Made by a program: the position numbers and the translations under genes. The notes under the pieces are model-generated. The model was not told where the DNA came from and did not search any database. It saw nothing but the letters and a program-made list of their open reading frames with translations. A stretch of 38,873 nt of DNA from Akkermansiaceae bacterium (lineage in GTDB: Bacteria; Verrucomicrobiota; Verrucomicrobiia; Verrucomicrobiales; Akkermansiaceae), in the NCBI GenBank assembly GCA_029253285.1, contig JAQWZU010000004.1, positions 1 to 38,873 on the forward strand. The letters run 5' to 3'. Numbering within the stretch: the first letter of the stretch is position 1; the number at the start of each line of letters is the position of its first letter. Positions 11,393 through 35,851 of the stretch are shown piece by piece.

Positions 11393-12091
11393 ATGATTCG
11401 AAATGCCCTTCTTTTTTGCCTTTGTCCTATTACGTTTACGTCCGTCCAAGCGGAGATCGAAAACGAAATTAAGTTGGGGATCGAAGCCGTCACCGGAATT
11501 CGTTCCAGCTATCTCCATCGCGGATATGATCTCGCCGGCGCATCGCTGGAATTTCAACTTCAAGCGGAGTTCGCCCTCTCCAACGAATCATCGCTCAACT
11601 TCGGCGTCTGGCATCTCGCTGAAAGCGACGGAGATTTTTCAGCAAACTCGGCCTATTTGGAACTGGATCACCAGGTCGCCGAACAACTCTGGATCGGCGG
11701 ATCGATCACTTATCGCGAATTGGATCGCAGCTCTCTCGACAGCGGCGGTGATCTCGGAACCTACTTCCGCTATCGCCCTCACGACGATTGGACCATCAGC
11801 GGAGAGCTACACTACGACTTTGCTGCCGACGGGTGGTATGCGGACACTGAATTGGAGTGGAGCCAACCACTCTCCGACACCGCCTTTATTGCAATCAGCA
11901 ACGGAGTCAGCTTTGCGTCCGACTACTACGGCGACAGCAGCTTTCACGATGTCTTCAGCAGAATCACTCTGACCTATCCTCTATCCGACGAAATCGCCTT
12001 CACGCCATTCGTAGGATCCAGCTTTTCCTTGAGCGATTCAAACCGCGACGATGAAGTCTACGCCGGCTTGTGGTTCGAGGTTATTTTTTAG
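11393..12091 (+). CDS. Probable outer-membrane beta-barrel protein
   Basis: About 232 residues from the ATG at 11393; an upstream TTG in frame at 11357 is less likely. A signal peptide, MIRNALLFCLCPITFTSVQA, is followed by alternating polar/hydrophobic strands typical of a barrel. The final residue is Phe after EVI, as required for outer-membrane assembly. Strand pairs with short turns (YLHRGYDLAG, SYLELDHQ-like segments, LSDEIAFTPFVGSS) suggest an eight- to twelve-strand barrel. I do not recognise the specific family. It lies 48 bases after aspS and may be read from the same transcript. Its end overlaps the convergent EF-hand gene by 11 bases. Confidence 0.75.
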   Translation: MIRNALLFCLCPITFTSVQAEIENEIKLGIEAVTGIRSSYLHRGYDLAGASLEFQLQAEFALSNESSLNFGVWHLAESDGDFSANSAYLELDHQVAEQLWIGGSITYRELDRSSLDSGGDLGTYFRYRPHDDWTISGELHYDFAADGWYADTELEWSQPLSDTAFIAISNGVSFASDYYGDSSFHDVFSRITLTYPLSDEIAFTPFVGSSFSLSDSNRDDEVYAGLWFEVIF

Positions 12092-12812
12092 GCCCCTTCT
12101 TCCGGGGGTCGCGAAGTTCGCTTGAATCCAGAAAGCCATCGGCATTTTTGTCGAGCTTTTGGAATAACTTCTCTCTCGCCTCCTCAGGCACTCCAAGAGA
12201 AATTGGACCCTTTTGGAATTCCTCCCTTGAAACTCTATTGTCCCCATTAGTGTCGAGGTTCTTCATCCCTCCCTCGGGCCTACCACCTTTTTTACCACGA
12301 CGGTCATGTCCCAACTTGGAATGGTCCTTGCGGCTCAAAAACCCATCCTTATTGCGATCCATTTGATCAAAAATACGACGAGCACGCTCCGGCGGCATCT
12401 CTTTGAATTTGGGAGAGTTTGAAAATTCCTCAATGCCCACCCGGCGGTCTTTGTTGGCATCCATTTTCTCAAATAGCGGGAATGCAAATCCGCCATGAGG
12501 GCCCTTTGGATCATGGGAACGTCTCAGCTCATTCTTCGAAATCACCCCATCACTGTCCTTATCCAAACGGTCAAAAATCTTCTTCCTGACCCCCTCATCA
12601 AGAGATTGCATCCTCTTGCTGGCTGAAAATTCCCCGAATGAGATTTCGCCGTTCTTATCGGCATCCAGTCGCTTCACCATGTCCTGGGATGACGGTCTTT
12701 CTCCACCCCGATCAGGCTTATCACCCTCTTTTTTAGGCTCTGCCTCACAACCCATCATTCCCGAAGAATTCAGGGTTACCAGTGCCAGAATGATGAAGAT
12801 AATGCGCGCCAT
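12081..12812 (-). CDS. Six-EF-hand lipoprotein
   Basis: A 243-residue secreted calcium-binding protein. The N-terminus is a hydrophobic signal followed by a lipobox-like GMMGC with the lipidated Cys at 22, then a charged linker. Six EF-hand loops follow, starting near residues 50 (DADKNGEISFGE), 84, 118, 152, 187 and 221, most with the D-x-D/N-x-D/N-G pattern. The third (DANKDRRVGIEE) and fifth (DTNGDNRVSREE) lack the central Gly, and the fourth ends in Asp-His instead of Glu. Such EF-hand lipoproteins are common in planctomycetes and Verrucomicrobiota, and their roles are mostly unknown. It converges on the barrel gene. Confidence 0.85.
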   Translation of the reverse strand: MARIIFIILALVTLNSSGMMGCEAEPKKEGDKPDRGGERPSSQDMVKRLDADKNGEISFGEFSASKRMQSLDEGVRKKIFDRLDKDSDGVISKNELRRSHDPKGPHGGFAFPLFEKMDANKDRRVGIEEFSNSPKFKEMPPERARRIFDQMDRNKDGFLSRKDHSKLGHDRRGKKGGRPEGGMKNLDTNGDNRVSREEFQKGPISLGVPEEAREKLFQKLDKNADGFLDSSELRDPRKKGPKK

Positions 12813-12914
12813 AGGATCAGCTTGGGGGAGTTAACCACAGAGTGGAGGCGAAGTTGCACAAAAAATCGCGCTTTTGCGTAGACTGGACACGGGGAGATTT
12901 TAAACTACCGGCAG

Positions 12915-13784
12915 ATGGAAATTCTTTCCCTTCTCAAAGCCCCCAAGCCAACTCTCTCTTTTGAATTTTTTCCTCCAAAAGACGACGCTGGAGCAGATGA
13001 TTTGCTGAAGACAGTCGATGACCTGGGAAAACTAGATCCAGCCTTCGTGAGTGTGACCTACGGAGCCGGCGGGACAACCAGGGGCCGCACCCGCTCCCTG
13101 GTTCAGCGTATCATGAAGGAAGCCTCTGTCCCTGCGGTCCCCCACCTGACGTGCATTGGACACTCTGAAGATGAAATGTCCGAGATTCTCGACCACTATT
13201 CGAAGGATCAAGTCAGCACCATTCTGGCCTTGCGGGGCGATCCACCACGCAATGAACCCAACTACGATCGCAGCAAAGACGACTTCAAGTTTGCCGCCGA
13301 CCTGGTGAAATTCATCAAGAACCATCACCACCCCATTGAAATTGGCGTCGCCGGATTTCCCGAGGGTCACCCCGCCACTCAAAACCGGCTCAAGGAAATG
13401 GAATACTTCAAAGCAAAAGTAGATGAGGGAGCTGACTACATTTGCACCCAGCTCTTTTTCGACAACCACGACTTCCTGGACTACCGGGATCGATGTGCTC
13501 TCGAAGGAATTCATCTTCCCATCGTGGCGGGCATCATGCCCATCACGACAATTTCCGGCATGAAGAGAATGGCCGAACTCGCCGAGGGAAGCCGATTTCC
13601 CGCAACACTATTGAAAGCTCTCAACACCGCAGGAAATGACGCCAAAGCCATCCAACAGGCTGGAATCCAACATGCGATTCATCAGTGCCAGGAACTCATC
13701 GACGAAGGAGTTTCAGGCCTACACCTTTACACTCTCAACAAGAGTAATGCGACCCTCACCATTGCCAACTCGCTGGAGTTTTAA
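12915..13784 (+). CDS. metF: Methylenetetrahydrofolate reductase
   Basis: Reduces 5,10-methylene-THF to 5-methyl-THF with FAD, supplying methyl groups for methionine. The 289-residue single-domain protein matches the bacterial MetF length. It has the N-terminal SFEFFPPK with catalytic Glu17, VSVTYGAGG followed by TTR, and the PHLTCIGH folate/FAD-binding strand, then LALRGDPP and VAGFPEGHP. The ATG start fits the family. It appears to be a single-gene unit, and no SAM or SAH riboswitch was recognised in the 102 bases upstream. It converges on the AsmA-like gene with 20 bases between stops. Confidence 0.95.
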   Translation: MEILSLLKAPKPTLSFEFFPPKDDAGADDLLKTVDDLGKLDPAFVSVTYGAGGTTRGRTRSLVQRIMKEASVPAVPHLTCIGHSEDEMSEILDHYSKDQVSTILALRGDPPRNEPNYDRSKDDFKFAADLVKFIKNHHHPIEIGVAGFPEGHPATQNRLKEMEYFKAKVDEGADYICTQLFFDNHDFLDYRDRCALEGIHLPIVAGIMPITTISGMKRMAELAEGSRFPATLLKALNTAGNDAKAIQQAGIQHAIHQCQELIDEGVSGLHLYTLNKSNATLTIANSLEF

Positions 13785-13804
13785 GGAGCACTCAGGTGGG
13801 TAGA

Positions 13805-15481
13805 TTACTCCTCCTCGATATACTCCTCTTCCCGTCTCGCTTCCTCGAGAACTTCCTTTGCGACATCCGCAGAGACCCGTGAAAAGGTGTTTTTGTTTTT
13901 AAAAGGAACCCAGCGCCACCCTAGGGCATCGGCAGGGAACATCTTGATCAGGTTATCGTATTTCGCGAAAGCGATTGCCGGCACTCCGAGGCTTAAATCT
14001 CCACGAACCCGGTAGACATTCATCTCGTCTCTCATCCTCATATCATCGATCTGCTGCGGAGTCATGACTCCACGCTGGGCCTCCGAAAGCCCGGCTAACC
14101 CTGAATTATCGAGATTAAGATAGTTTTCCTCCTCCTGCAAAAGACCCGCCGCAGTCTTCAGACTCATCCGCTCATCCTCTAAATCCTTGGCCGCCGAAGT
14201 GTCAGTACTGTCAGATTTAAAACTCCCCGAGCCAATCCCTTCGGTCAACACGATTTCAAGGGCCTCTGCAGCTTCCTTCTGACTAGGCAAATGGGTTTTA
14301 AATTCGCCCTTCAACGCAGCCAATGAACCCGACTTCAGATCAATCCCATTTACCTCCATCTCTCCTCCCCCGGTTTTGAAGGAAAACATGCCCTCTTCAA
14401 AATCAACCCGTCGGTATGTCCGGTCCACATCAAGAACTGAAATCGCCCGCAAGAGATCCCACTTCTCACGTAAAGTGACCACATCATTCCCTCGCAATTC
14501 TACATCGGCTTCCATCACAATACGATAATCAGTTGATCCGGAAATTTTCAGATCTCCGGAAATCGAACCCGACATAAACTCCCTCACGTCAATCCCCGGA
14601 AGCCTCACCAAAGATAGAATTGGCAATGATTGAAATGATCCTTTTAAATCAAATTTCGGACGTGCCGCCGGCCCCATAATTGAACCAGCCAGTTCCATTT
14701 CCCCGCCGTTCTTGGACAAGAGCAACTTCTCCACTCTGATTCCATCCGAATCACACAGCAACTTGGCCTCCTTGATATCGAGATTCTTCAACCAGTTCTG
14801 ACTGAACCGTCCTCCCTCGAGTGAGATTTCCCACACCCCTTGATCCCGGGAGGCGCGAAACTTCGCCTTTTCTAGTTTCCCGTAGGTAATCTTGGAATAC
14901 CCCCATTCACAACTCAACTCATCGATCTCAATGGACTCCAGATTCCCCTCCGACATGCTCGCTATAATTGAAGCAAAGGAATTCTCCATTTCCTCCTGAT
15001 CCCCTCCCGCTTTGAGTTCAAAATAGGCTGACTTCATCCTCACCTGCTCAGGTGCCCACTTGGAGGTAATTCCAGTGAGAAAGCTCGAAGCTGCTGCCAA
15101 GCGATTGATTTCAGCCTGATAGAAAAAGCTCTCTTCCCCACCTTCAATGACAAGGTCTTGAAAAGTCGAAACACCCCTGGCTCTCTCAAACTTCTTGGCT
15201 TCGATGGAGCTGGCCCCCAATACCTCACCCAGCGCAGCCGTCACTTCGCCTCGGTAATCATCCCCTCCAAAATAGTGATTGAGGGCAAAAAACGCCACTC
15301 CCAGGCACAGCAGCAGCACTACCAGCACTCTCAAAAACAACACTCCCAACTGCTTGATCACGGACCCACCACCCATGGTTCCGGCATGGCGTAATTGGAA
15401 AAAGATCCCTTGTTTTGCAATCCAATCAGTCACGCGTTTTTGATATTCATCAAGGCGCTGCTGATCGATAAGGTTACCCAC
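13805..15481 (-). CDS. Membrane-anchored AsmA-like protein of unknown function
   Basis: A 558-residue protein with one membrane helix near residues 45-67 (LGVLFLRVLVVLLLCLGVAF), a short cytoplasmic N-terminus and a large periplasmic part. The periplasmic region has many short strands and SGSISGDLKISG / MELAGSIMGP-type segments, as in AsmA/TamB-like beta-groove proteins that move or organise lipids. I assign only this broad resemblance. The C-terminal 100 residues look different: a helical part, then FAKYDNLIKMFPADALGWRW and an acidic Glu-rich tail. The start is taken as GTG at 15481; an ATG at 15376 (residue 36) is an alternative that keeps the helix. It is divergent from scpA. Confidence 0.72.
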   Translation of the reverse strand: MGNLIDQQRLDEYQKRVTDWIAKQGIFFQLRHAGTMGGGSVIKQLGVLFLRVLVVLLLCLGVAFFALNHYFGGDDYRGEVTAALGEVLGASSIEAKKFERARGVSTFQDLVIEGGEESFFYQAEINRLAAASSFLTGITSKWAPEQVRMKSAYFELKAGGDQEEMENSFASIIASMSEGNLESIEIDELSCEWGYSKITYGKLEKAKFRASRDQGVWEISLEGGRFSQNWLKNLDIKEAKLLCDSDGIRVEKLLLSKNGGEMELAGSIMGPAARPKFDLKGSFQSLPILSLVRLPGIDVREFMSGSISGDLKISGSTDYRIVMEADVELRGNDVVTLREKWDLLRAISVLDVDRTYRRVDFEEGMFSFKTGGGEMEVNGIDLKSGSLAALKGEFKTHLPSQKEAAEALEIVLTEGIGSGSFKSDSTDTSAAKDLEDERMSLKTAAGLLQEEENYLNLDNSGLAGLSEAQRGVMTPQQIDDMRMRDEMNVYRVRGDLSLGVPAIAFAKYDNLIKMFPADALGWRWVPFKNKNTFSRVSADVAKEVLEEARREEEYIEEE

Positions 15482-25565: not shown

Positions 25566-28500
25566 CTATTTCTTGGGGGGCTTTTTGGCCGCCTTCTTCG
25601 TGGCCTTCTTGGCTGCTTTTTTGGCGACCTTGGTCACGGTGGTGACCTTCTTAACGGCTGCCTTTTTCGCTGCCGGAGGCTTCGGCGGCGGCGGTGTCAT
25701 ATCCTCATCATCTCCACCTCCGTGACTGAGAATAAACTGAAGATCCTCCATTCCGAGATTCGAGGCAAAGCCTTCGTCTCCGAGAATATTGGTCACGAGC
25801 GCCGTCTTCTGGTGTTGCAGGATCCGAATCTTCTCCTCCACGGAATCGCGGGTCAGGAGACGATAGGCGATCACCTTGTTCTTCTGTCCAATTCGGTGCG
25901 TCCGGTCAATGGCCTGATTCTCCACTGCGGGGTTCCACCATGGATCGTAAAGGATGACGTAGGACGCCGAGGTCAGGTTGAGACCAGCACCACCTGCTTT
26001 GAGCGAGAGAAGGAAGACCGATGGATCCTTGGTCGTTTGAAATTTCTCAATCTCCCCTTTCCGGTCCTTGGTCTGACCGGTGAGATAGTTGAAGGGGCGA
26101 CTCTCGACTTCAAGACGCGTCTTGATGATGTCGAGCATGGAAACGAACTGCGAGAAAACGAGCACCTTGTGGTTTTCTTCGCGAAGCTGGTCGAGCAAAT
26201 AGAACAAGGCGTTCATCTTGGCGCTCTCCTCCTTGAGCCACTTTGGATCGATAAGACCGGGGTGACAACAGATCTGACGCAAACGCATCAGCCCTTGAAG
26301 AATCGCAAAGCTGTTCTTCTTAACCGCTTCGTCCGAATCGAGTCCGAGAAGAGCCTTCTGGATACGCTTAAGTTCGGCTTTGTAGAGTTCTTCCTGAATT
26401 CCATCCATTCCAGCGAAAACCTCTTCCTCTGTTCTTGGCGGAAGATCTTTTGCCACTTGACCTTTGGTCCGGCGAAGAAGGAAAGGACGCAAACGAGCAG
26501 CGAGACGGTTCTGACTGCTCGGGTCCTTCCGCTTGTCAAAGCGGCGCTTGAAGTAAGCGCGCGTTCCGAGAACACCCGGCATCGCAAAGGCCATCAGCGA
26601 CCACATGTCCATGAGCCGATTCTCAATCGGAGTACCAGTGAGGACGAGGCGATTTTCCGCATCCAGTTCGCGGGCACACTTCGCAGCCTTCGAATCCGGG
26701 TTCTTGATCTGCTGTCCTTCATCGAGAATTACGGTTAGCCAGCGGATTTTGTTTAACTCCTCCCCGCAGACGCGGAGCTGAGCGTAGTTCAGGACGAGAA
26801 TATCGAGCTCTTCGCGGACCTCCTTAAGATCGAGATCATCGCGAGTGCGAAGGACCTTCACGTTCAATTCCGGAGCAAATTTCCCGGCCTCGGTCGCCCA
26901 GACATCGAGCACGGATTTCGGGCAAACCACGAGAGCCGGCCCAAGTCGCTTCATCTTCTCATCTGACTCGGCATTTTTACGCAACCAGAGAATGTAAGTG
27001 ATACTCTGGATGGTTTTACCAAGACCCATATCATCCGCAAGAATTCCACCGAATCCATTGGTCGAAAGATAGGCCAGGAATTGGAATCCCTCGACCTGAT
27101 AAGGCCGAAGCTTGGCATTCAATTCAGTCGGCACATCGGGCTTGATATCGATCTGAATATCGCGGGCACGATCCTTGATTCGCTTCCAAGCTTTCGGGTC
27201 GAAGACCTCGGCAGCCTTTGGATCAGCTAATTGCATGGCGTGCATGCGGTGGGTTTCTCCGGAGAGATCAAAGGGATCAAGACCCAGTCTGGTGACCGCG
27301 TCGCGCTGATCTGGATCGAGTTTAATTTCCAAACGCATCCAAGAGCCGTCATCCATACGGACATAGCCACCACGAGCGGCAACCAACTGGCGAATTTGCG
27401 CTTTGGATAAATTCACACCATCAACATCGATGACGACGCGGAGATCGAACCAATCGATTTCCTGATTCACGACCTCAAAGCGAATTGCAGCGGTCACCGG
27501 ATCGGCCAAAATTGTCTTGAGCTTCTGCTCGATGTCCAACTCGAGGTAATCGGGCATGGACTCAATCCATTCCGCAAATTTCTCAGGAAACTGCTTGGTG
27601 ATCCGCCCTTTGAAGGCCTCCAGCTTCTCGTCATAAGTCAGGCCCATTTCCAGGAGAAGACTCGGAACAGGATACAGTTTCTCCCGAGCGAAACGCAGGA
27701 GGGCTTTCCCTTTTACCGGCTTTTGCTCGATGAGATCCCACCCGGCTTTGATCAATTTCTCTTCGCGACGTCCTTTGGATTCAAACGCCTTTACATCAAC
27801 GATAAGGTGCTCGGTTTCCGCAGCGGTCAGCCCCTGCTCAACCCACAATTTGAAGTGGGGAAAGAGATCCAAATCCGTCACCCGACGCTTCATCGAAGGA
27901 GGCAGACTTGATCCAATCTTACGCAGGAATTCCACCCCTTCCAAGCTGTCGATCACCGACTTTGGAATGGAATATCGTGGCATGATCTCGGTATCCTCCA
28001 ACCAACGGGGAGGACCGGGGAAGACGGTTTCGTCTGACTGGTATAGTTCGGTCCGACCGGGGAGCAAACGAACGGAGTGGGACACGAAATCCCCTGACTT
28101 CGTCACCAATTGAAGAGCGAAGGAATTTGGATCCATAGCGTCATCGTCACAAATCCAACTCAGCTTTTCATCCACCACCTTGAACGGACGTTCATCGAGG
28201 TTCACGAGGTATCCAGCCAACTCCTTCTGATGGAACAGCAGGTTCATGAAGCGACAGGATTCCTCTTGCTCAAGATCAAGGTAGGTCTCCCCACTCTTCT
28301 CGGAAAAGCGCAGGAAGTGTTCCCACAAAATCCGGCTGGCGGCATCCATCCTCAGGGCGGCGGCATCAAAGAGTTTCAGAATGCGTTCAATCTCCCCTTT
28401 TTCGCGGAGCGAGGTCCATTCTTCCTCTCCCTCTTCACGGGCTTCGACCCGGGCTTCGTTAATCGTCGAGAGAAGCCGGAATTCAATCTTATGAGGAATT

Positions 28501-29216
28501 TCCTGGGGAGGACGGTCATTGACACTTTCGATCCGGTCATACCAAGCCGCCACCTCGCGCTCCTGCTCCCAATCGTGCATCCGGCGCTGAACTCCTTCGA
28601 GATCAGTGATGCACTCCATGAAGTCGGCATAAGGCAGCTTCTTCTTATAGAAGGCGTAGGCAAGGTAGTTCCAGAACTCCAAAATATCCCCCGGAGGCAC
28701 AGGCCAGAGTTCGAGCGGCTCGTAACTTGCGATCTCCCAGCGGGGATTCAAGCGCACCATATCGTGATCGTGAATTTCACCCTCGATGACATATCGGCGA
28801 TAGCGCTTCTCCACTTTGGAGACAAACTCGGCCTCTTTGTCGTCCAATTCCCGATCAAGCTTCTCCTCAATCAGGTCAACAATCGGAGTATCATCAAATT
28901 CATTCGGAGATTCCGGAAGATCCTCCCCCCGGTGCAAACGCTCCAGCATGGCCGCAAACATGACCGCTCCCGCTGTTTCATCGTCCTCGGTGGAACAACT
29001 ACCAAACCAACGGTTTCCCTGCAGCCGCAAGGTCGTGCGATGTACGCCGGTCTTATCTTCGACGCGCCCCTGAATAAAGAGGTGATTTCCAAAAATCTGG
29101 GTCACAGCCCCTTCTTCTTGTAAATGCTCACCGCGCTTTCGCACAGCTTCGGGGAAACTATTTAGGAAATTGAGGGTTGCCCGGTCCGGGTTCAACGCTG
29201 ACATATTACTGGCCAT
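25566..29216 (-). CDS. SNF2-family helicase with Lys/Ala-rich C-terminal tail
   Basis: A 1216-residue SNF2/Swi2-type ATPase from ATG at 29216 (MASNMSALNPDRA); the frame is open 28 codons further up. The N-terminal ~120 residues resemble a SWIM-type region (RGEHLQEEGAVTQIFG, then HLFIQGRV) but lack its full Cys/His set. The ATPase core starts near 700: motif I is LADDMGLGKTIQ (about 725) and motif II is DEGQ, as in bacterial SNF2 proteins, instead of DEAH. The helicase C domain (GLNLTSASYVILYDPWWNPA, then AIDRTHRIGQ) is complete. The last ~40 residues are almost only Lys, Ala, Pro, Val and Thr, like a histone-H1 tail, which should bind DNA. It likely remodels protein-DNA complexes or RNA polymerase; the target is unknown. 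Confidence 0.93.
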   Translation of the reverse strand: MASNMSALNPDRATLNFLNSFPEAVRKRGEHLQEEGAVTQIFGNHLFIQGRVEDKTGVHRTTLRLQGNRWFGSCSTEDDETAGAVMFAAMLERLHRGEDLPESPNEFDDTPIVDLIEEKLDRELDDKEAEFVSKVEKRYRRYVIEGEIHDHDMVRLNPRWEIASYEPLELWPVPPGDILEFWNYLAYAFYKKKLPYADFMECITDLEGVQRRMHDWEQEREVAAWYDRIESVNDRPPQEIPHKIEFRLLSTINEARVEAREEGEEEWTSLREKGEIERILKLFDAAALRMDAASRILWEHFLRFSEKSGETYLDLEQEESCRFMNLLFHQKELAGYLVNLDERPFKVVDEKLSWICDDDAMDPNSFALQLVTKSGDFVSHSVRLLPGRTELYQSDETVFPGPPRWLEDTEIMPRYSIPKSVIDSLEGVEFLRKIGSSLPPSMKRRVTDLDLFPHFKLWVEQGLTAAETEHLIVDVKAFESKGRREEKLIKAGWDLIEQKPVKGKALLRFAREKLYPVPSLLLEMGLTYDEKLEAFKGRITKQFPEKFAEWIESMPDYLELDIEQKLKTILADPVTAAIRFEVVNQEIDWFDLRVVIDVDGVNLSKAQIRQLVAARGGYVRMDDGSWMRLEIKLDPDQRDAVTRLGLDPFDLSGETHRMHAMQLADPKAAEVFDPKAWKRIKDRARDIQIDIKPDVPTELNAKLRPYQVEGFQFLAYLSTNGFGGILADDMGLGKTIQSITYILWLRKNAESDEKMKRLGPALVVCPKSVLDVWATEAGKFAPELNVKVLRTRDDLDLKEVREELDILVLNYAQLRVCGEELNKIRWLTVILDEGQQIKNPDSKAAKCARELDAENRLVLTGTPIENRLMDMWSLMAFAMPGVLGTRAYFKRRFDKRKDPSSQNRLAARLRPFLLRRTKGQVAKDLPPRTEEEVFAGMDGIQEELYKAELKRIQKALLGLDSDEAVKKNSFAILQGLMRLRQICCHPGLIDPKWLKEESAKMNALFYLLDQLREENHKVLVFSQFVSMLDIIKTRLEVESRPFNYLTGQTKDRKGEIEKFQTTKDPSVFLLSLKAGGAGLNLTSASYVILYDPWWNPAVENQAIDRTHRIGQKNKVIAYRLLTRDSVEEKIRILQHQKTALVTNILGDEGFASNLGMEDLQFILSHGGGDDEDMTPPPPKPPAAKKAAVKKVTTVTKVAKKAAKKATKKAAKKPPKK

Positions 29217-29412: not shown

Positions 29413-30702
29413 ATGAAAGTCACCCCACGCGGACTCCTTCTGATCGGTCTCTGGCTTCTAGCGCTGGGAATCGGGATTATGATCGGGAGGCAACAATCTC
29501 CTTCTTCCCGCGAAATCTCCGTCTCGGAGGACGCTCCGGCCACTTCTGGAGCAAGCTCAGATAATCGCAGTGGTTCACCATCTCTCTCCAATCAAAGCTC
29601 CGGCCTCTCCCGCAAACGCTCTGTTTCCTCCCCTGAACAACACGACCGAATCGAAGCTGCGCGCTTCCAGATGGCGGAAATCCTCAATACCAGCAATCGT
29701 ATTGAGCGCACCCGGCAACTCATTCAATTCATCGATCAACTCGACCCCTCTGAATATGAAGGTGTCGTCTCGGGATTCCGGGAATCAGGGTGGGTTGACT
29801 ACAATCGCAGCGAGTATGTCATGCTCATCTCAGCCTGGATGAGTCAGGATCCCCACTCTGCGATCGACTATTTCGAACAAAGCGAACCCGATGGCTGGAG
29901 TCGTAAAACCGCTATCGCCGCCTGGGCCGCCGAGGATCCGGAAGCCGCCGCAGGTGCCATTGACGGACTGAAAGATGAAGGCGACGTCAATGATTGGATC
30001 GTTGGCTTGGCCCAGGGTATGGCCCGAAATGATCCCGCGGGAGCTTTGCAGACCTTGCAAAGACTTCCCGCCAATGAAACCCGCAAACAAGCTATCCGCA
30101 CTATCCTCCCAGAAGTCGTATCCCGAGGGACCGATTTCGCCGGCAAATGGGTTGAGATGATCGAAGAACCCAAACTCCAGCGGGAAGCTGCCACCCGTCT
30201 GGCCCGCCCGCTGGCGGACCGCGACCCGGTCGCAGCCGCCGAGTGGATCCGGGAAATAAATACCGTAGGCACCCGGCGGGACGCCTCGGAGGTCGTTGCC
30301 GACGTCTACGCCGCCAACGATATTGAGGGAGCCAGGCTCTGGACCGAGAGTCTGCCACCGGATACCATGACGGAAGCAGCGGAGGGAGTGGCCAAACATC
30401 TCGCCCGCCAAGACCCGGCCGAGGCCGCACAATGGCTGCAGAATTTGGGGGATGATCCCGACCTCGATGGCGCGCGCATCCTATTCCTTCGCGAAGCAGG
30501 CAGTCAGGATCCGCAAATCGCACTCGATAGTGTCCCCACCCTCTCAAAAAGCTCCGACCAGGAACGCTACTACCGTGACATCTTAAAGACCTGGTCCAAG
30601 ACCGACAAACAAGCGGCCATCGCGTGGGCCATCGACAACGCCGCAACCCTACCCCCAAAAATCATCAAATCAATCGTGCCGAAGGACCAACGCCCTGAGT
30701 GA
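29413..30702 (+). CDS. Membrane-anchored W/DP-repeat protein, copy 1
   Basis: I do not recognise a named family. The 429-residue protein has one N-terminal helix (GLLLIGLWLLALGIGIMIGR, about 7-26) and a Ser-rich linker to about 75. The rest consists of helical repeats of roughly 30-35 residues, each with an Ala-Trp, Asp-Pro and Ala core: ISAWMSQDPHSAIDYF, IAAWAAEDPEAAAGAI, LARPLADRDPVAAAEWI, LARQDPAEAAQWLQ, LKTWSKTDKQAAIAWA. This suggests a TPR/HEAT-like superhelix on the periplasmic side. It has a clear paralogue at 31698-32990 with the same layout. Its stop codon directly abuts the convergent stop of the next gene. Confidence 0.8.
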   Translation: MKVTPRGLLLIGLWLLALGIGIMIGRQQSPSSREISVSEDAPATSGASSDNRSGSPSLSNQSSGLSRKRSVSSPEQHDRIEAARFQMAEILNTSNRIERTRQLIQFIDQLDPSEYEGVVSGFRESGWVDYNRSEYVMLISAWMSQDPHSAIDYFEQSEPDGWSRKTAIAAWAAEDPEAAAGAIDGLKDEGDVNDWIVGLAQGMARNDPAGALQTLQRLPANETRKQAIRTILPEVVSRGTDFAGKWVEMIEEPKLQREAATRLARPLADRDPVAAAEWIREINTVGTRRDASEVVADVYAANDIEGARLWTESLPPDTMTEAAEGVAKHLARQDPAEAAQWLQNLGDDPDLDGARILFLREAGSQDPQIALDSVPTLSKSSDQERYYRDILKTWSKTDKQAAIAWAIDNAATLPPKIIKSIVPKDQRPE

Positions 30703-31179
30703 TCAACTGAGGTGGTATTCCTCGAGCAAATCGAGATACTCCTCCCACTCGGGAGAATCCTCTTTTGAGATCTCTTTAAGTTCCGCCAATCGGGATTCGA
30801 TCAATTGATCTCCAGACTTTTCTTCGATGAGCAAAGTGACAAGAGACTGCAGAGCCAAAATCTGCGTTACTTCGTCAGAATCACCATCCAACACCTCCTC
30901 GTAAAGATTGATCGCCTCCTTGGGATTGGGTGAGAAATCCGCCCGGGTGGAAATCAAGGCCGACAGCCGGCCATACTTCTCTTCCAACCCATCCAACAAG
31001 TGGAACAGTTCTTTGGTGAAATTGTCGTCTAGAGCTGCGTCGCCAGACAAGGACGCATTGACAACCTTCATGGCCGCCTCTTGTAAAGGCTTCCAGTCTT
31101 CCGGGGAAATCCCTTCCGGTATCATGTTCCTGAAACTCAGGAATAAATCAGCAGCCTCATCCACCGCCACCACCACCAT
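30703..31179 (-). CDS. Acidic helical protein downstream of the YlbF gene
   Basis: Family not recognised. From the ATG at 31179 it is 158 residues, acidic and predicted to be all helix, with TPR-like stretches (ALISTRADFSPNPKEAINLY, LALQSLVTLLIEEKSGDQLI, SRLAELKEISKEDSPEWEEY). The start overlaps the end of the ylbF-like gene by 23 bases in another frame; an ATG at 31125 (MIPEGISPEDW) is an alternative. The open frame extends to 31266, but that extension reads the Gly/Cys tail of the upstream gene out of frame. The overlap suggests translational coupling and a joint function. Confidence 0.7.
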   Translation of the reverse strand: MVVVAVDEAADLFLSFRNMIPEGISPEDWKPLQEAAMKVVNASLSGDAALDDNFTKELFHLLDGLEEKYGRLSALISTRADFSPNPKEAINLYEEVLDGDSDEVTQILALQSLVTLLIEEKSGDQLIESRLAELKEISKEDSPEWEEYLDLLEEYHLS

Positions 31180-31603
31180 CACCCTCGCCACTACTCTCGC
31201 CACCGCAGCAACCGCCGCCCTGGGTTTGGGCAATGTCTTCTGAAGTCGGCACGCGTCCCAGCTCAAGCGTCATCCCGACCAAGCGACCAACAGTCGTTTG
31301 AAGGCTCTCGAGATCCTTTTGGGCTCCGAGAAATTCCGAAGCAATCGGATTGGCCATCAAAGATTCCCGAGCCGACTCGAACTGGGCGATTTCCGAATCG
31401 GCAAGCTCCAGTCCGGCCTGCTGCTTTTGATTCAGGGCCTGACCGCTTTCGTGCACCGATTGATAGGCCAACCGGGCTTCATCATTGTTGAGAAAAGTCT
31501 CAACCTTCGCCAATAATTGCTGGTAATCCGCATCTTCGGCAATCGTGGAACAAAGCTCGCGTGCTTTTGACATCACGGCGGAATCGTCTTCAAGGATCTT
31601 CAT
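31157..31603 (-). CDS. YlbF-family protein with Gly/Cys-rich tail
   Basis: A 148-residue helical protein resembling the YlbF/YmcA family (RicF and RicA in Bacillus, partners of RicT in RNA-processing and developmental control). The family region runs from about 8 to 115: SKARELCSTIAEDADYQQLL, then NNDEARLAYQSVHESGQALN, then PIASEFLGAQKDLESLQTTV. The tail is unusual: Gly-rich with adjacent Cys132-Cys133 (QGGGCCGGE) and ends in six Gly. Bacillus relatives bind Fe-S clusters through conserved Cys, so metal binding is possible but unproved. The frame stays open to 31963, but those first 120 codons are antisense to the next gene; ATG at 31603 is the sensible start. Confidence 0.78.
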   Translation of the reverse strand: MKILEDDSAVMSKARELCSTIAEDADYQQLLAKVETFLNNDEARLAYQSVHESGQALNQKQQAGLELADSEIAQFESARESLMANPIASEFLGAQKDLESLQTTVGRLVGMTLELGRVPTSEDIAQTQGGGCCGGESSGEGDGGGGGG

Positions 31604-31697
31604 GGAGAAGCCATAGCCACGACTTTCCGATCCGGCAACCGTTAGATTGAAAAAATCCCGTCTGTGTTTGGGTAAATCTATGATAAAATAACACAAG

Positions 31698-32990
31698 ATG
31701 GACAACAAAACTTCTCTGATCACCGCCGGTTGGGCTCTTAGCTGCGGTGTCGCCTTCTTTATCGGACGGACCAACTCCGACGCTCCATCCAATTCGGCAG
31801 AGGCGAATAACAGCATCCAGGTGTCCTCCTCAGGCCCAAGCCGAACCATTTCCAGAGATACCACCCCTCCCTCTAAATCTTCAAATAGAAGTGGGCGCAT
31901 ACTCACGGGCAGCGAAACTCCGAACGAACTCCAATTGTCGGTTGACGATCTACTCGCCATCACCGACCCGATTTTCAGGACCCGGGGATTTCTCGAATTG
32001 GTCGAAAACCTGAGTCCTGACCAGTTTCTCTCGGTCGTGGACTACTACCGCAGTTTTGGCGTCGATGACCAACAATTTGGAGAATACGGTATTCTCCTCA
32101 CCGCCTGGGCCAAGGTCGACCCACTTCAAGCCCTCACCTACGCCAGCGAGAAAACAAGAGGCTCTTTCGCCCGCCAAACAATTCTCTCATCCTGGGCCAA
32201 AGATGATCCCGAATCCGCCATTTCCTGGGCCAAGGACAACTTCGAGGAAGGAAAAGACACCCGAGATCCGGCCAATCCATGGCTCGTCGGGGTGATCAAA
32301 GGGATTGTCTCGCAAGACATGCCGCGCGCCACTCAACTCCTCGAAGAACTGCCCTACTCCCGCGGACGCTCCGAGGCCCTGGATGCTATTTTCGACTCCC
32401 TCAACCGAGAAGGAACCGAGGCCACCAAGGAATGGATTTCCCGTCTCTCGGACGAACAACTTCAGGCCGGAGCCGCCTCCCGCCTCGCCAACAAAATGGC
32501 CGAGAGCAATCCCCAGGAAGCGATCGAATGGGCTGGCAGCGTAAGCGAGGAAGCTCTCAAAAATTCCGCTGACGACATTGTTGAAAAATGGGCTGAGAAC
32601 GACTTGGAAGGAGCGCAAGCTTGGGTGGACAGCCAACCCACCGAAATCGCGTCTTCGGCAGCTCCGGAGCTCATCGACGCCATCATCGATCAAAGCGGAG
32701 TCGTCGCGGCCTCCGCCTGGCTTTCGCAACACGAAGGAAACCCTGCATTCGACCGCACGGTGCAAACCCTCGTCTGGAATTCCATGCGCGAAACCCCGGA
32801 ACTTGGCTTTGATTGGATTATGAAAATGACCAACGAGCGCGAGCGAGCCCGCACCGCCCACCGTACCATCGGAGATTGGGCAAAACGGGACATGGAGGGA
32901 GCCTATGACTACGTGCAAAACAATCCTGTCCCCGAAGGCATTCAGAAACGCCTCGAATACCAACTCAAAGAGTCCCAAAAACCAAAGTAA
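31698..32990 (+). CDS. Membrane-anchored W/DP-repeat protein, copy 2
   Basis: Paralogue of the protein at 29413-30702, with the same length (430) and layout. An N-terminal helix ends in the same Ile-Gly-Arg motif (FFIGRTN here, IMIGRQQ there). A Ser/Thr-rich linker follows, then about ten helical repeats: LLTAWAKVDPLQALTYA, LSSWAKDDPESAISWA, KMAESNPQEAIEWAG, VEKWAENDLEGAQAWVD, IGDWAKRDMEGAYDYV. Sequence identity to copy 1 is clear but not high, so the duplication is old. It is divergent from the ylbF-like gene (94 bases between starts), and msrA follows 9 bases after its stop. Confidence 0.8.
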   Translation: MDNKTSLITAGWALSCGVAFFIGRTNSDAPSNSAEANNSIQVSSSGPSRTISRDTTPPSKSSNRSGRILTGSETPNELQLSVDDLLAITDPIFRTRGFLELVENLSPDQFLSVVDYYRSFGVDDQQFGEYGILLTAWAKVDPLQALTYASEKTRGSFARQTILSSWAKDDPESAISWAKDNFEEGKDTRDPANPWLVGVIKGIVSQDMPRATQLLEELPYSRGRSEALDAIFDSLNREGTEATKEWISRLSDEQLQAGAASRLANKMAESNPQEAIEWAGSVSEEALKNSADDIVEKWAENDLEGAQAWVDSQPTEIASSAAPELIDAIIDQSGVVAASAWLSQHEGNPAFDRTVQTLVWNSMRETPELGFDWIMKMTNERERARTAHRTIGDWAKRDMEGAYDYVQNNPVPEGIQKRLEYQLKESQKPK

Positions 32991-32999
32991 GAAAAGACT

Positions 33000-33599
33000 A
33001 TGAAAACCCTCTACTCCATCATTTCATTCTTCGCATTGAGCATCGCAGCCTGTAAATCCGAAGCCGATAAAGACACCGTGCCCAAAGACCACATTACCAT
33101 CACCCTGGGCGGAGGCTGCTACTGGTGCGTCGAAGCCGTCTTCCAGCAACTCGACGGCGTGGCTTCTGTGACCTCCGGATTCATGGGGGGGCATATTCCA
33201 AACCCCACCTACAAGCAGGTTTGCGAAGGAACGACGGGGCACGTCGAGGTGATCAACGTGGTTTACAATCCCAAGATCATCTCCACCAAAACCATCCTAA
33301 AATGGTTCTGGAAAGCCCATGACCCCACAAATCCACTGGGTCAGGGTGCCGACATTGGCGAGCACTATACCAGCAATATTTTCTACCACAACGACGAGCA
33401 GAAAGCGGATGCCGAGTGGTCCAAAAAGACCGTTCAGGAGGCCTTCGCAAAGCCGATTGTAACCAGGATCCGTAAAGTCGGAGTCTTCTACAAGGCGCAG
33501 GAAGATCATCAAAACTACTACGCCCGAATGAAGAACAAAAACCCCTACTGCCAGGCGGTCATCACTCCCAAGCTCGAAAAGCTTAACTTGGAAAAATAG
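33000..33599 (+). CDS. msrA: Peptide methionine-S-sulfoxide reductase, lipoprotein form
   Basis: Repairs oxidised methionine (S form) in proteins. The catalytic motif is GGCYWCVEAVF with active Cys40 (Tyr replaces the usual Phe of GCFWC). GHVEVINVVYNPKIIS and DPTNPLGQGADIGEHYTSNI are the other conserved segments. The N-terminus is a signal with lipobox SIAAC, lipidated Cys18, so the enzyme should sit in the envelope, unlike cytoplasmic MsrA. The C-terminal part has a single extra Cys (NPYCQAV), a possible resolving residue. It lies 9 bases after repeat protein copy 2 and is probably co-transcribed with it. Confidence 0.94.
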   Translation: MKTLYSIISFFALSIAACKSEADKDTVPKDHITITLGGGCYWCVEAVFQQLDGVASVTSGFMGGHIPNPTYKQVCEGTTGHVEVINVVYNPKIISTKTILKWFWKAHDPTNPLGQGADIGEHYTSNIFYHNDEQKADAEWSKKTVQEAFAKPIVTRIRKVGVFYKAQEDHQNYYARMKNKNPYCQAVITPKLEKLNLEK

Positions 33600-34768: not shown

Positions 34769-35812
34769 TTAATTGGCTCCAAAATAGGTCTCCAGTCCTG
34801 GCAGCTCCCTTTTAAGAGCGGCCGCTCCTTCCGGCGTGGCTTTAGAATCCCACAAGTAAAGCTTCCGCAGCTTGGGCAAAGCCTTGAGTTTCAGCAAACC
34901 TGCATCAGTCACCTTGCTGCCATAGAGATTGAGCCATTCGAGCTCTTTCAGTCGCGCAACCGCATCGAGCCCCCCATCACCAATCGCGGTTTGGCTGAGA
35001 TCCAGCTTGGTGAGATTCTTCATCTTGGGCAACTCGGAGATCAAAACGCTCTCGGAGATTAAGGTTGAGCCAACTTTCACCGTGGCAAGAGAGTCCGCGA
35101 TTGGAGCCAGCTTTTTGAATCCCTCGTCATCGAGCGATTTCCGAAGGCTCACTGCGGTAAATTCGAGTTCGGTAGAATCTTGGGAGACATACATCAGGGA
35201 GGTCTTGAACAACTCGTCCTGCTTGAGGGTATTCAAAGCCCCCTCGATGGCTTTCCGCTTGGCAGCCGCTACGTCCTCAGCATTCTTTTTAGCAGACTCT
35301 ATGGCCGCTTTCGCTGCAGCGAGCTCTTCCGGCGACGCCAATTTAGCAGCCGCATCAAGAATACTCTGCGGAGCATTCAGCTCCCTGAGAGTTTGATCTT
35401 TCGGCTGTTGACTTCCTTTTGGAAGACTGCCTACCCACCACTCGAGAAGTGCAATTTCCGGAGCCTCCATTTGGGTCTTCTTCTTGGGAGGCATGTGATA
35501 ATCATCATCTTCGGGAAGACGAAGCACCTCGATCATGAAACTTTCCTTCACATCTCCTGGAACAAGAGCGGTAGCTTCCTCTCCCCCCTCGAGAAGCCCT
35601 TCCCAACTATCCAACAAGAGACCGCCCTTTTTCTTCTGATCTTTTCCGGTGCCATGACAGTCATAGCACTTGCCCTGTAAGATGGGAACGACCACATCGG
35701 TATAGGCCAGACGATCCTCAGGAGCTTTGAACTTCTTGGGCTCCTCGCCCGAGCCTACAAAGATCACACCCCCGAAACTGGCTAAGGAAATCCACAGCGA
35801 CTTAGTTTGCAT
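34769..35812 (-). CDS. Exported cytochrome c-leucine-rich-repeat protein
   Basis: A 347-residue protein from the ATG at 35812 (MQTKSLWISL); the frame opens 9 codons earlier. A signal peptide is followed by a planctomycete-type cytochrome c domain with one heme site, Cys49-x-x-Cys52-His53 (KCYDCHGTG), and the axial Met107 in HMPPKKK. A coiled, Ala/Lys/Glu-rich stretch (about 150-200) leads to a C-terminal leucine-rich-repeat domain (LTKLDLSQTAIGDGGL, LEWLNLYGSKVTDAGL, LRKLYLWDSKATPEGA). It is a tandem paralogue of the C-terminal two thirds of 35906-37534 but lacks the membrane domain. Probably periplasmic; electron partner unknown. Confidence 0.88.
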   Translation of the reverse strand: MQTKSLWISLASFGGVIFVGSGEEPKKFKAPEDRLAYTDVVVPILQGKCYDCHGTGKDQKKKGGLLLDSWEGLLEGGEEATALVPGDVKESFMIEVLRLPEDDDYHMPPKKKTQMEAPEIALLEWWVGSLPKGSQQPKDQTLRELNAPQSILDAAAKLASPEELAAAKAAIESAKKNAEDVAAAKRKAIEGALNTLKQDELFKTSLMYVSQDSTELEFTAVSLRKSLDDEGFKKLAPIADSLATVKVGSTLISESVLISELPKMKNLTKLDLSQTAIGDGGLDAVARLKELEWLNLYGSKVTDAGLLKLKALPKLRKLYLWDSKATPEGAAALKRELPGLETYFGAN

Positions 35813-35851
35813 ATAAAAGTGATCTACCACAGCAAACAAACGACAGAAAGC
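35754..35851 (-). repeat. Leader-module repeat, copy B (promoter plus signal peptide)
   Basis: Partner of the repeat at 34658-34755. On the minus strand it begins GCTTTCTGTCGTTTGTTTGC and includes the start of the cytochrome c-LRR gene (MQTKSLWISLASFGGVIFVG against MQTKALWFALASLGVGIFVA). I count it as a direct repeat in the same orientation, lying one gene length apart. Confidence 0.75.

What the first reader, a model, noticed from the sequence alone, without database searches (positions are those of the whole stretch)
29413..32990. Twin membrane-anchored W/DP-repeat proteins enclosing a YlbF-like pair
Two paralogous, equally long (429 and 430 residues) proteins share an N-terminal helix ending in Ile-Gly-Arg, a Ser/Thr linker and about ten helical repeats with a Trp, Asp-Pro, Ala-Ala-Trp core. 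Between them, on the other strand, lie a YlbF-family protein and an acidic helical protein whose genes overlap; msrA follows copy 2. The symmetric layout and shared control region suggest one envelope-linked module with a cytoplasmic YlbF-type component. I know of no described system with this make-up. Layout and repeats are seen; a joint function is inference.
Basis: partly seen in the sequence, partly recalled or inferred. Interest (0 to 1): 0.62.

Follow-up and report, generated by a model that had tools for sequence, protein, structure and literature searches.

The report
Envelope repeat proteins beside a ylbF-type gene
Two related helical-repeat proteins, probably tethered in the cell envelope, flank a small cytoplasmic regulator-type gene; relatives of the repeat proteins are fused to known signalling proteins, which suggests an undescribed family of outside-the-cell sensing or binding domains rather than one dedicated two-part machine.

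Summary
The layout is real: RP1 (429 aa), a PF06133 (YlbF-type) gene overlapped by an acidic gene, RP2 (430 aa), then a lipoprotein MsrA. All are under purifying selection. RP1 and RP2 belong to an unnamed Verrucomicrobiota repeat family (no Pfam, NCBIfam, PHROG or PADLOC model), predicted as alpha-solenoids on an N-terminal anchor. Within the window's genus the order SNF2-RP1-ylbF-RP2-msrA is kept while the flanks change. Across Akkermansiaceae, RP2 is beside ylbF in 29 of 86 genomes (five genera), RP1 in 22 of 33 (two genera). The tie is not obligatory: Akkermansia has ylbF without the family, other Verrucomicrobiota the family without ylbF. The acidic gene is a recent insertion. ylbF has its own predicted leaderless promoter, conserved with or without RP2. 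RNase Y and YaaT/PSP1 are absent from 58 relatives, so the Bacillus Y-complex mechanism does not apply. RP domains elsewhere are fused to an ECF sigma factor and to a BlaR1-type M56 protein, and RP1 follows a two-component system in three genomes; both fusions place the repeats outside the membrane. Best reading: RP is an extracytoplasmic recognition domain feeding various signalling outputs. A joint RP-YlbF function remains unproven.

The parts
29413..30702 (+). RP1: N-terminal hydrophobic anchor, Ser/Thr linker, W/DP helical repeats (429 aa, no Cys)
30703..31179 (-). Acidic helical protein (158 aa), overlaps the ylbF 3' end; clade-specific insertion
31157..31603 (-). PF06133 (YlbF/YmcA/YheA superfamily) protein with a CC-containing, Gly-rich tail (148 aa)
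31610..31638 (-). Predicted ylbF promoter TTGCCG-N17-TATGGC, 6 nt before the ATG (predicted leaderless transcript)
   Evidence: same arrangement in 78 of 80 loci, 1.1% of random positions
31604..31697 (.). 94-nt divergent gap between ylbF and RP2
31698..32990 (+). RP2: paralogue of RP1 (430 aa)
33000..33599 (+). MsrA with lipoprotein signal (LSIAAC), 9 nt after RP2; kept next to RP2 in the genus
25566..29216 (-). SNF2-family helicase, divergent from RP1; kept next to RP1 in the genus

Best explanation
RP1 and RP2 are inner-membrane-anchored proteins whose alpha-solenoid of W/DP repeats sits in the periplasm and binds a ligand, most likely another protein or an envelope polymer. They belong to a large Verrucomicrobiota family in which the same domain is also built into signalling proteins, so the domain most likely works as an extracytoplasmic recognition or sensing part whose output depends on what it is joined to. 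RP1 and RP2 themselves have no output domain and would act as tethered binding partners or adaptors. The YlbF-type protein is a cytoplasmic, independently transcribed (predicted leaderless) housekeeping gene of the order; its long association with RP1 and RP2 is an inherited neighbourhood, possibly with some regulatory benefit. Shown: family membership, anchor, predicted fold, fusions, neighbourhoods, promoter pattern. Inferred: periplasmic side, ligand binding, signalling role.
For: Anchor plus linker plus repeats is the build of RP proteins across the phylum. In four genomes, the window's own included, an RP domain follows an ECF sigma factor (Sigma70_r2 and r4 confirmed in two of them) in one 649-650 aa ORF; the two copies checked have one hydrophobic segment between, which puts RP on the far side of the membrane. 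In G127 an RP follows a BlaR1 M56 peptidase (E 1.7e-21) after four hydrophobic segments, where BlaR1 carries its outside sensor, with a BlaI-type repressor (PF03965, E 1.8e-23) just upstream and further RP genes downstream. In three genomes where RP1 has left ylbF it follows a response regulator and a histidine kinase on the same strand. RP repeat domains are 96% Cys-free over 106 proteins. AlphaFold2 gives a confident solenoid. The ylbF promoter is kept with or without RP2; RP and ylbF are found one without the other.
Against: No experiment and no known ligand. Most RP genes scanned have no sigma or M56 partner (only one further sigma gene nearby). The M56 fusion is one genome, and an internal start inside that ORF is possible. 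The RP2 anchor is only weakly hydrophobic. Lack of Cys is a weak location marker. PPR-like folds top the structural list, so nucleic-acid binding in the cytoplasm is not formally excluded.
Confidence: 0.5

Rival explanations
1. A dedicated RP1-YlbF-RP2 module: the two periplasmic solenoids sense the envelope and signal to the cytoplasmic YlbF-type protein, which acts through an Fe-S or thiol tail.
For: Block kept in essentially all genus members while outer flanks change; RP2 beside ylbF in 29/86 genomes over five genera and RP1 in 22/33 over two; RP1 and RP2 groups each need one change on the tree; RP2 away from ylbF shows no other widely recurring neighbour.
Against: RP2 is apart from ylbF in 57/86 genomes, including all of g7, g10 and g29; Akkermansia keeps ylbF with no RP, and several other families keep RP with no ylbF; opposite strands and a ylbF promoter independent of RP2; RP1 and RP2 have no cytoplasmic part large enough to meet YlbF if they face the periplasm.
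Confidence: 0.2
2. Plain inherited gene order: RP1/RP2 arose by local duplication next to ylbF in the Akkermansiaceae ancestor and stay there by inertia in some genera; no functional link to ylbF at all, RP being structural envelope proteins.
For: Double occurrence pattern and loss of adjacency in most genera; tandem RP2-like copies next to ylbF in G071 fit local duplication.
Against: Within the genus the five-gene block is kept where its neighbours are not, at RP identity of about 50%.
Confidence: 0.25
3. RP proteins are cytoplasmic RNA-binding solenoids of the PPR/TPR kind working with YlbF in RNA processing.
For: Designed PPR proteins and mitoribosomal PPRs head the structural second look (Z 11-13); YlbF relatives act in RNA maturation in Bacillus (PMC6751060).
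Against: No Foldseek hit at E <= 0.001, and Z under about 13 is unspecific for helical repeats (tool note); N-terminal anchor and the two fusion topologies point outside; no RNase Y and no PSP1/YaaT in 58 genomes, while both searches find their controls.
Confidence: 0.05

Closest known systems
Bacillus subtilis Ric/Y-complex (RicF = YlbF, RicA = YmcA, RicT = YaaT, with RNase Y)
   Same: PF06133 fold family; Cys-rich C-terminal tail: CC...CGC in most of the order, like the four tail Cys of RicF (C134, C138, C144, C146; PMC6751060)
   Different: No RicT (PSP1) and no RNase Y in 58 relatives, a single match per genome, NCBIfam YlbF/YmcA equivalog cut-off not reached (19.2 against 130), tail reduced to CC plus poly-Gly in the window
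YheA / UPF0342 (DUF964) proteins
   Same: Closest solved chains by sequence profile (2oee, E 3.3e-5)
   Different: The Cys-rich tail; to my knowledge the function of YheA is unknown, so this gives no mechanism
BlaR1/MecR1 sensor-proteases with BlaI/MecI
   Same: In one relative an RP domain follows the M56 core after four hydrophobic segments, with a BlaI-type gene upstream
   Different: RP in place of the penicillin-binding sensor; RP1 and RP2 of the window have no M56 part
ECF sigma factors with C-terminal membrane extensions
   Same: Sigma-70 regions 2 and 4 followed by one hydrophobic segment and an RP domain in four genomes, the window's own included
   Different: RP1 and RP2 have no sigma domain; the RP extension is not matched by Pfam
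PPR, TPR and HEAT-type alpha-solenoids
   Same: Two-helix repeats in a superhelix
   Different: 31-32 residue W/DP-A-W repeat, no Pfam repeat model reached for RP1 or RP2, no significant structural match

Membership tests
PF06133 Com_YlbF superfamily (window 31157-31603) | Score over the Pfam gathering cut-off | tested here: met
   53.5 bits against 23.9
YlbF/YmcA equivalog (NCBIfam NF010209) | Score over the curated cut-off | tested here: not met
   19.2 bits against 130
halo-CC-star HcsL (NCBIfam NF041416) | Score over the curated cut-off | tested here: not met
   29.9 bits against 140
Bacillus Y-complex (RicAFT with RNase Y) | RicT/YaaT (PSP1, PF04468) encoded in the genome | tested here: not met
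   0 of 58 genomes, 6 of 14 control genomes ring
Bacillus Y-complex (RicAFT with RNase Y) | RNase Y (PF12072) encoded in the genome | tested here: not met
   0 of 58 genomes, 6 of 14 control genomes ring
Bacillus Y-complex (RicAFT with RNase Y) | Fe-S binding by tail cysteines | not testable with these tools
   Cys tail seen in the order, needs spectroscopy
RP repeat family (RP1, RP2) | Common descent over the full length | tested here: met
   27% identity over 437 columns, E 4e-47; profile hits across the phylum
PPR/TPR/HEAT repeat families | Match to a family profile | tested here: not met
   No repeat family reaches its gathering score for RP1, RP2 or ten further RP proteins; ELYS passes its cut-off (35.7 against 28.8) for one distant long RP protein, without a significant single stretch
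PPR/TPR/HEAT repeat families | Significant structural match | tested here: inconclusive
   No Foldseek E <= 0.001; Z up to 13.1 in the second look, unspecific for repeats
ECF sigma / BlaR1 signalling proteins | Sigma or M56 domain in RP1 or RP2 themselves | tested here: not met
   No such domain in RP1 or RP2; present only in paralogues

The most novel reading that the evidence does not exclude
RP1 and RP2 are a pair of periplasmic sensing solenoids that report envelope state to a YlbF-type protein working without RicT, RicA or RNase Y: one branch of a wider RP sensor family that also drives ECF sigma factors, BlaR1-type proteases and two-component systems.
Probability: 0.15. Interest if true: 0.72.

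Novelty: new variant of a known kind. Interest (0 to 1): 0.45.

Why it matters
A large protein family (up to 32 matches per genome) in Verrucomicrobiota has no domain model in the libraries searched and no proposed role that I could find. The fusions found here give it a testable role as an extracytoplasmic recognition domain and point to which signalling proteins to test first. Separately, an order-wide YlbF-type gene without RNase Y or YaaT shows that this superfamily must have a function besides assisting RNase Y.

Tried and rejected
Pfam, NCBIfam, PHROG and PADLOC for RP1/RP2: nothing above cut-off. PDB by sequence profile: no convincing hit (TON_1535 at E 0.0015 over 57 residues set aside). 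Foldseek and VIA-align: generic solenoids only. Y-complex hypothesis rejected for lack of RicT and RNase Y. Shared promoter idea rejected. The sigma-70 consensus scan of the region gave no more hits than shuffles, so the ylbF promoter rests on conservation, not on that scan. Search for a constant neighbour of RP2 away from ylbF: none beyond small local groups. Long class-level RP proteins (640-850 aa) checked for sigma fusion: none; they are simply longer solenoids. Literature searches for Verrucomicrobial solenoid paralogues, YlbF in Verrucomicrobia, ECF extensions and CC-star gave nothing useful.

Full report
What is there. The window holds, in order, a SNF2 helicase (minus), RP1 (plus), an acidic ORF and a PF06133 gene (both minus, overlapping by 23 nt), RP2 (plus) and a lipoprotein MsrA (plus). 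RP1 and RP2 are 27% identical along their whole length. Comparison with three close relatives gives dN/dS of 0.02-0.29 for all six genes, so none is a chance ORF. The PF06133 gene starts at the ATG at 31603, not at the upstream GTG of the mechanical ORF list. Nearest named records are Verrucomicrobiales/Akkermansiaceae metagenome assemblies.

The repeat proteins. AlphaFold2 with 36 family rows gives a mean pLDDT of 83.4 and, after a disordered anchor and linker (residues 1-66 below 50), about ten pairs of helices forming a solenoid; the profile repeats at 32 residues. The core motif is roughly W-A-x-x-D-P-x-x-A-x-x-W. No Pfam, NCBIfam, PHROG or PADLOC model covers RP1 or RP2, and structural comparison finds only generic PPR, TPR and HEAT superhelices without significant E-values. 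Own-genome profile search finds the two window genes and several further loci; relatives have up to 32 matches; the family is present in 31 of 194 Verrucomicrobiota genomes at E <= 1e-10.

The neighbourhood. In the genus, SNF2-RP1-ylbF-RP2-msrA is the order in nearly all genomes whose contigs allow it to be seen, while genes outside the block mostly differ. In 80 named loci fetched by YlbF, 30 have an RP next to it: the window's genus, Roseibacillus (RP2 side only), Luteolibacter marinus and some others (RP1 side only); the other 50 have none. In 145 genomes of the family, RP2 orthologues are next to ylbF in 29 of 86 genomes (g1 17/17, g8 2/2, g27 3/4, g28 6/8, g32 1/7; none in g7, g10, g29), RP1 orthologues in 22 of 33 (g1 14/16, g7 8/14); one of the two g1 exceptions, G020, looks like a contig break. 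A quick tree of 106 RP proteins puts the ylbF-side RP2 rows and RP1 rows each on one side of a branch, and together in one group apart from most other paralogues. So an ancestral RP-ylbF neighbourhood is likely in Akkermansiaceae, lost many times. Beyond it the two part: the sampled Akkermansia genomes (genus g3) have ylbF and no RP, and genomes such as G173, G184, G205 and G214 have RP and no ylbF. Sharing of neighbours within one family is also what inertia would give, so this is not proof of joint function.

The acidic gene. It is at this locus in four genomes only (the window's and three relatives at about 90% identity), with weaker matches elsewhere in two more. It is a recent addition, probably translated together with ylbF, and cannot define a system.

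The YlbF-type gene. It is present once in 48 of 58 relatives across the order and in 139 of 145 genomes of the family. Its tail carries CC and CxC motifs across the order, worn down to CC plus glycines in much of the window's genus; the order-level pattern resembles the RicF tail, in which C134 and C146 ligate a 4Fe-4S cluster (PMC6751060). But there is no PSP1 protein and no RNase Y in any of 58 genomes, with both controls positive, so the known Y-complex role cannot be transferred. By profile its nearest solved structures are YheA-type.

Control region. Upstream of ylbF, TTGnnn-17-TAnnnn ends about 6 nt before the ATG in 78 of 80 loci, against 1.1% of random positions; this holds in 53 of 55 loci not counted as having RP2 on that side. 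That spacing puts the predicted start of transcription at the A of the ATG, hence a leaderless mRNA (inference). The element belongs to ylbF itself, so it gives no evidence for shared control with RP2. A weak excess of such sites at distances 6-7 in 534 genes of these loci (the ylbF genes were not excluded from that count) suggests that leaderless starts may not be unique to ylbF there.

What RP domains do. Three contexts tie RP to signal transduction. First, an ECF sigma factor followed by RP in one ORF in four genomes; one hydrophobic segment separates the parts in the two copies checked. Second, a BlaR1 M56 peptidase followed by RP, with four hydrophobic segments and a BlaI-type repressor upstream; the RP anchor itself supplies the fourth segment. 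Third, RP1 directly downstream of a response regulator and histidine kinase in three genomes of genus g7, beside a MacB-type permease (the kinase and regulator were confirmed by Pfam in one of the three). The first two place RP outside the membrane by the topology of their partners. With the near-absence of cysteine, the best reading is an extracytoplasmic recognition domain with interchangeable outputs. RP1 and RP2 would be free-standing, tethered versions; their ligands are unknown.

Verdict. The claim of one module with YlbF is weakly supported and not excluded. The larger finding is the repeat family and its fusions.

Noticed in passing
window 31604-31638 (minus strand) and L125-L204: Predicted leaderless ylbF promoter (TTGnnn-17-TAnnnn, about 6 nt before ATG) in 78 of 80 loci.
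   Followed up: partly
L115 11728-13674 (G000:C204), L211, L242, L243: ECF sigma factor fused through one hydrophobic segment to an RP repeat domain, followed by more RP genes; in the window's genome also a 1089-aa protein between them whose sequence looks like a YVTN-repeat / cytochrome-type protein (by eye, not searched).
   Followed up: partly
L313 556-4566 (G127:C71): BlaI-type repressor, BlaR1 M56 peptidase fused to an RP domain, then further RP genes in tandem.
   Followed up: partly
L279, L280, L281 (genus g7): RP1 orthologue directly downstream of a response regulator and histidine kinase, next to a MacB-type ABC permease.
   Followed up: partly
Verrucomicrobiales, 58 genomes: YlbF-type protein with RicF-like Cys tail although RNase Y and YaaT/PSP1 are absent from all genomes searched.
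   Followed up: partly
window 30703-31179 and L043, L044: Acidic helical gene inserted behind ylbF in four genomes; distant relatives at other loci in two more genomes.
   Followed up: no
window 12081-15481: EF-hand-like / MTHFR / membrane protein cluster that in genus g28 sits next to ylbF and RP2 instead of far away.
   Followed up: no
window 34769-35839: Planctomycete-type cytochrome c (PSCyt1) domain protein with leucine-rich repeats.
   Followed up: no
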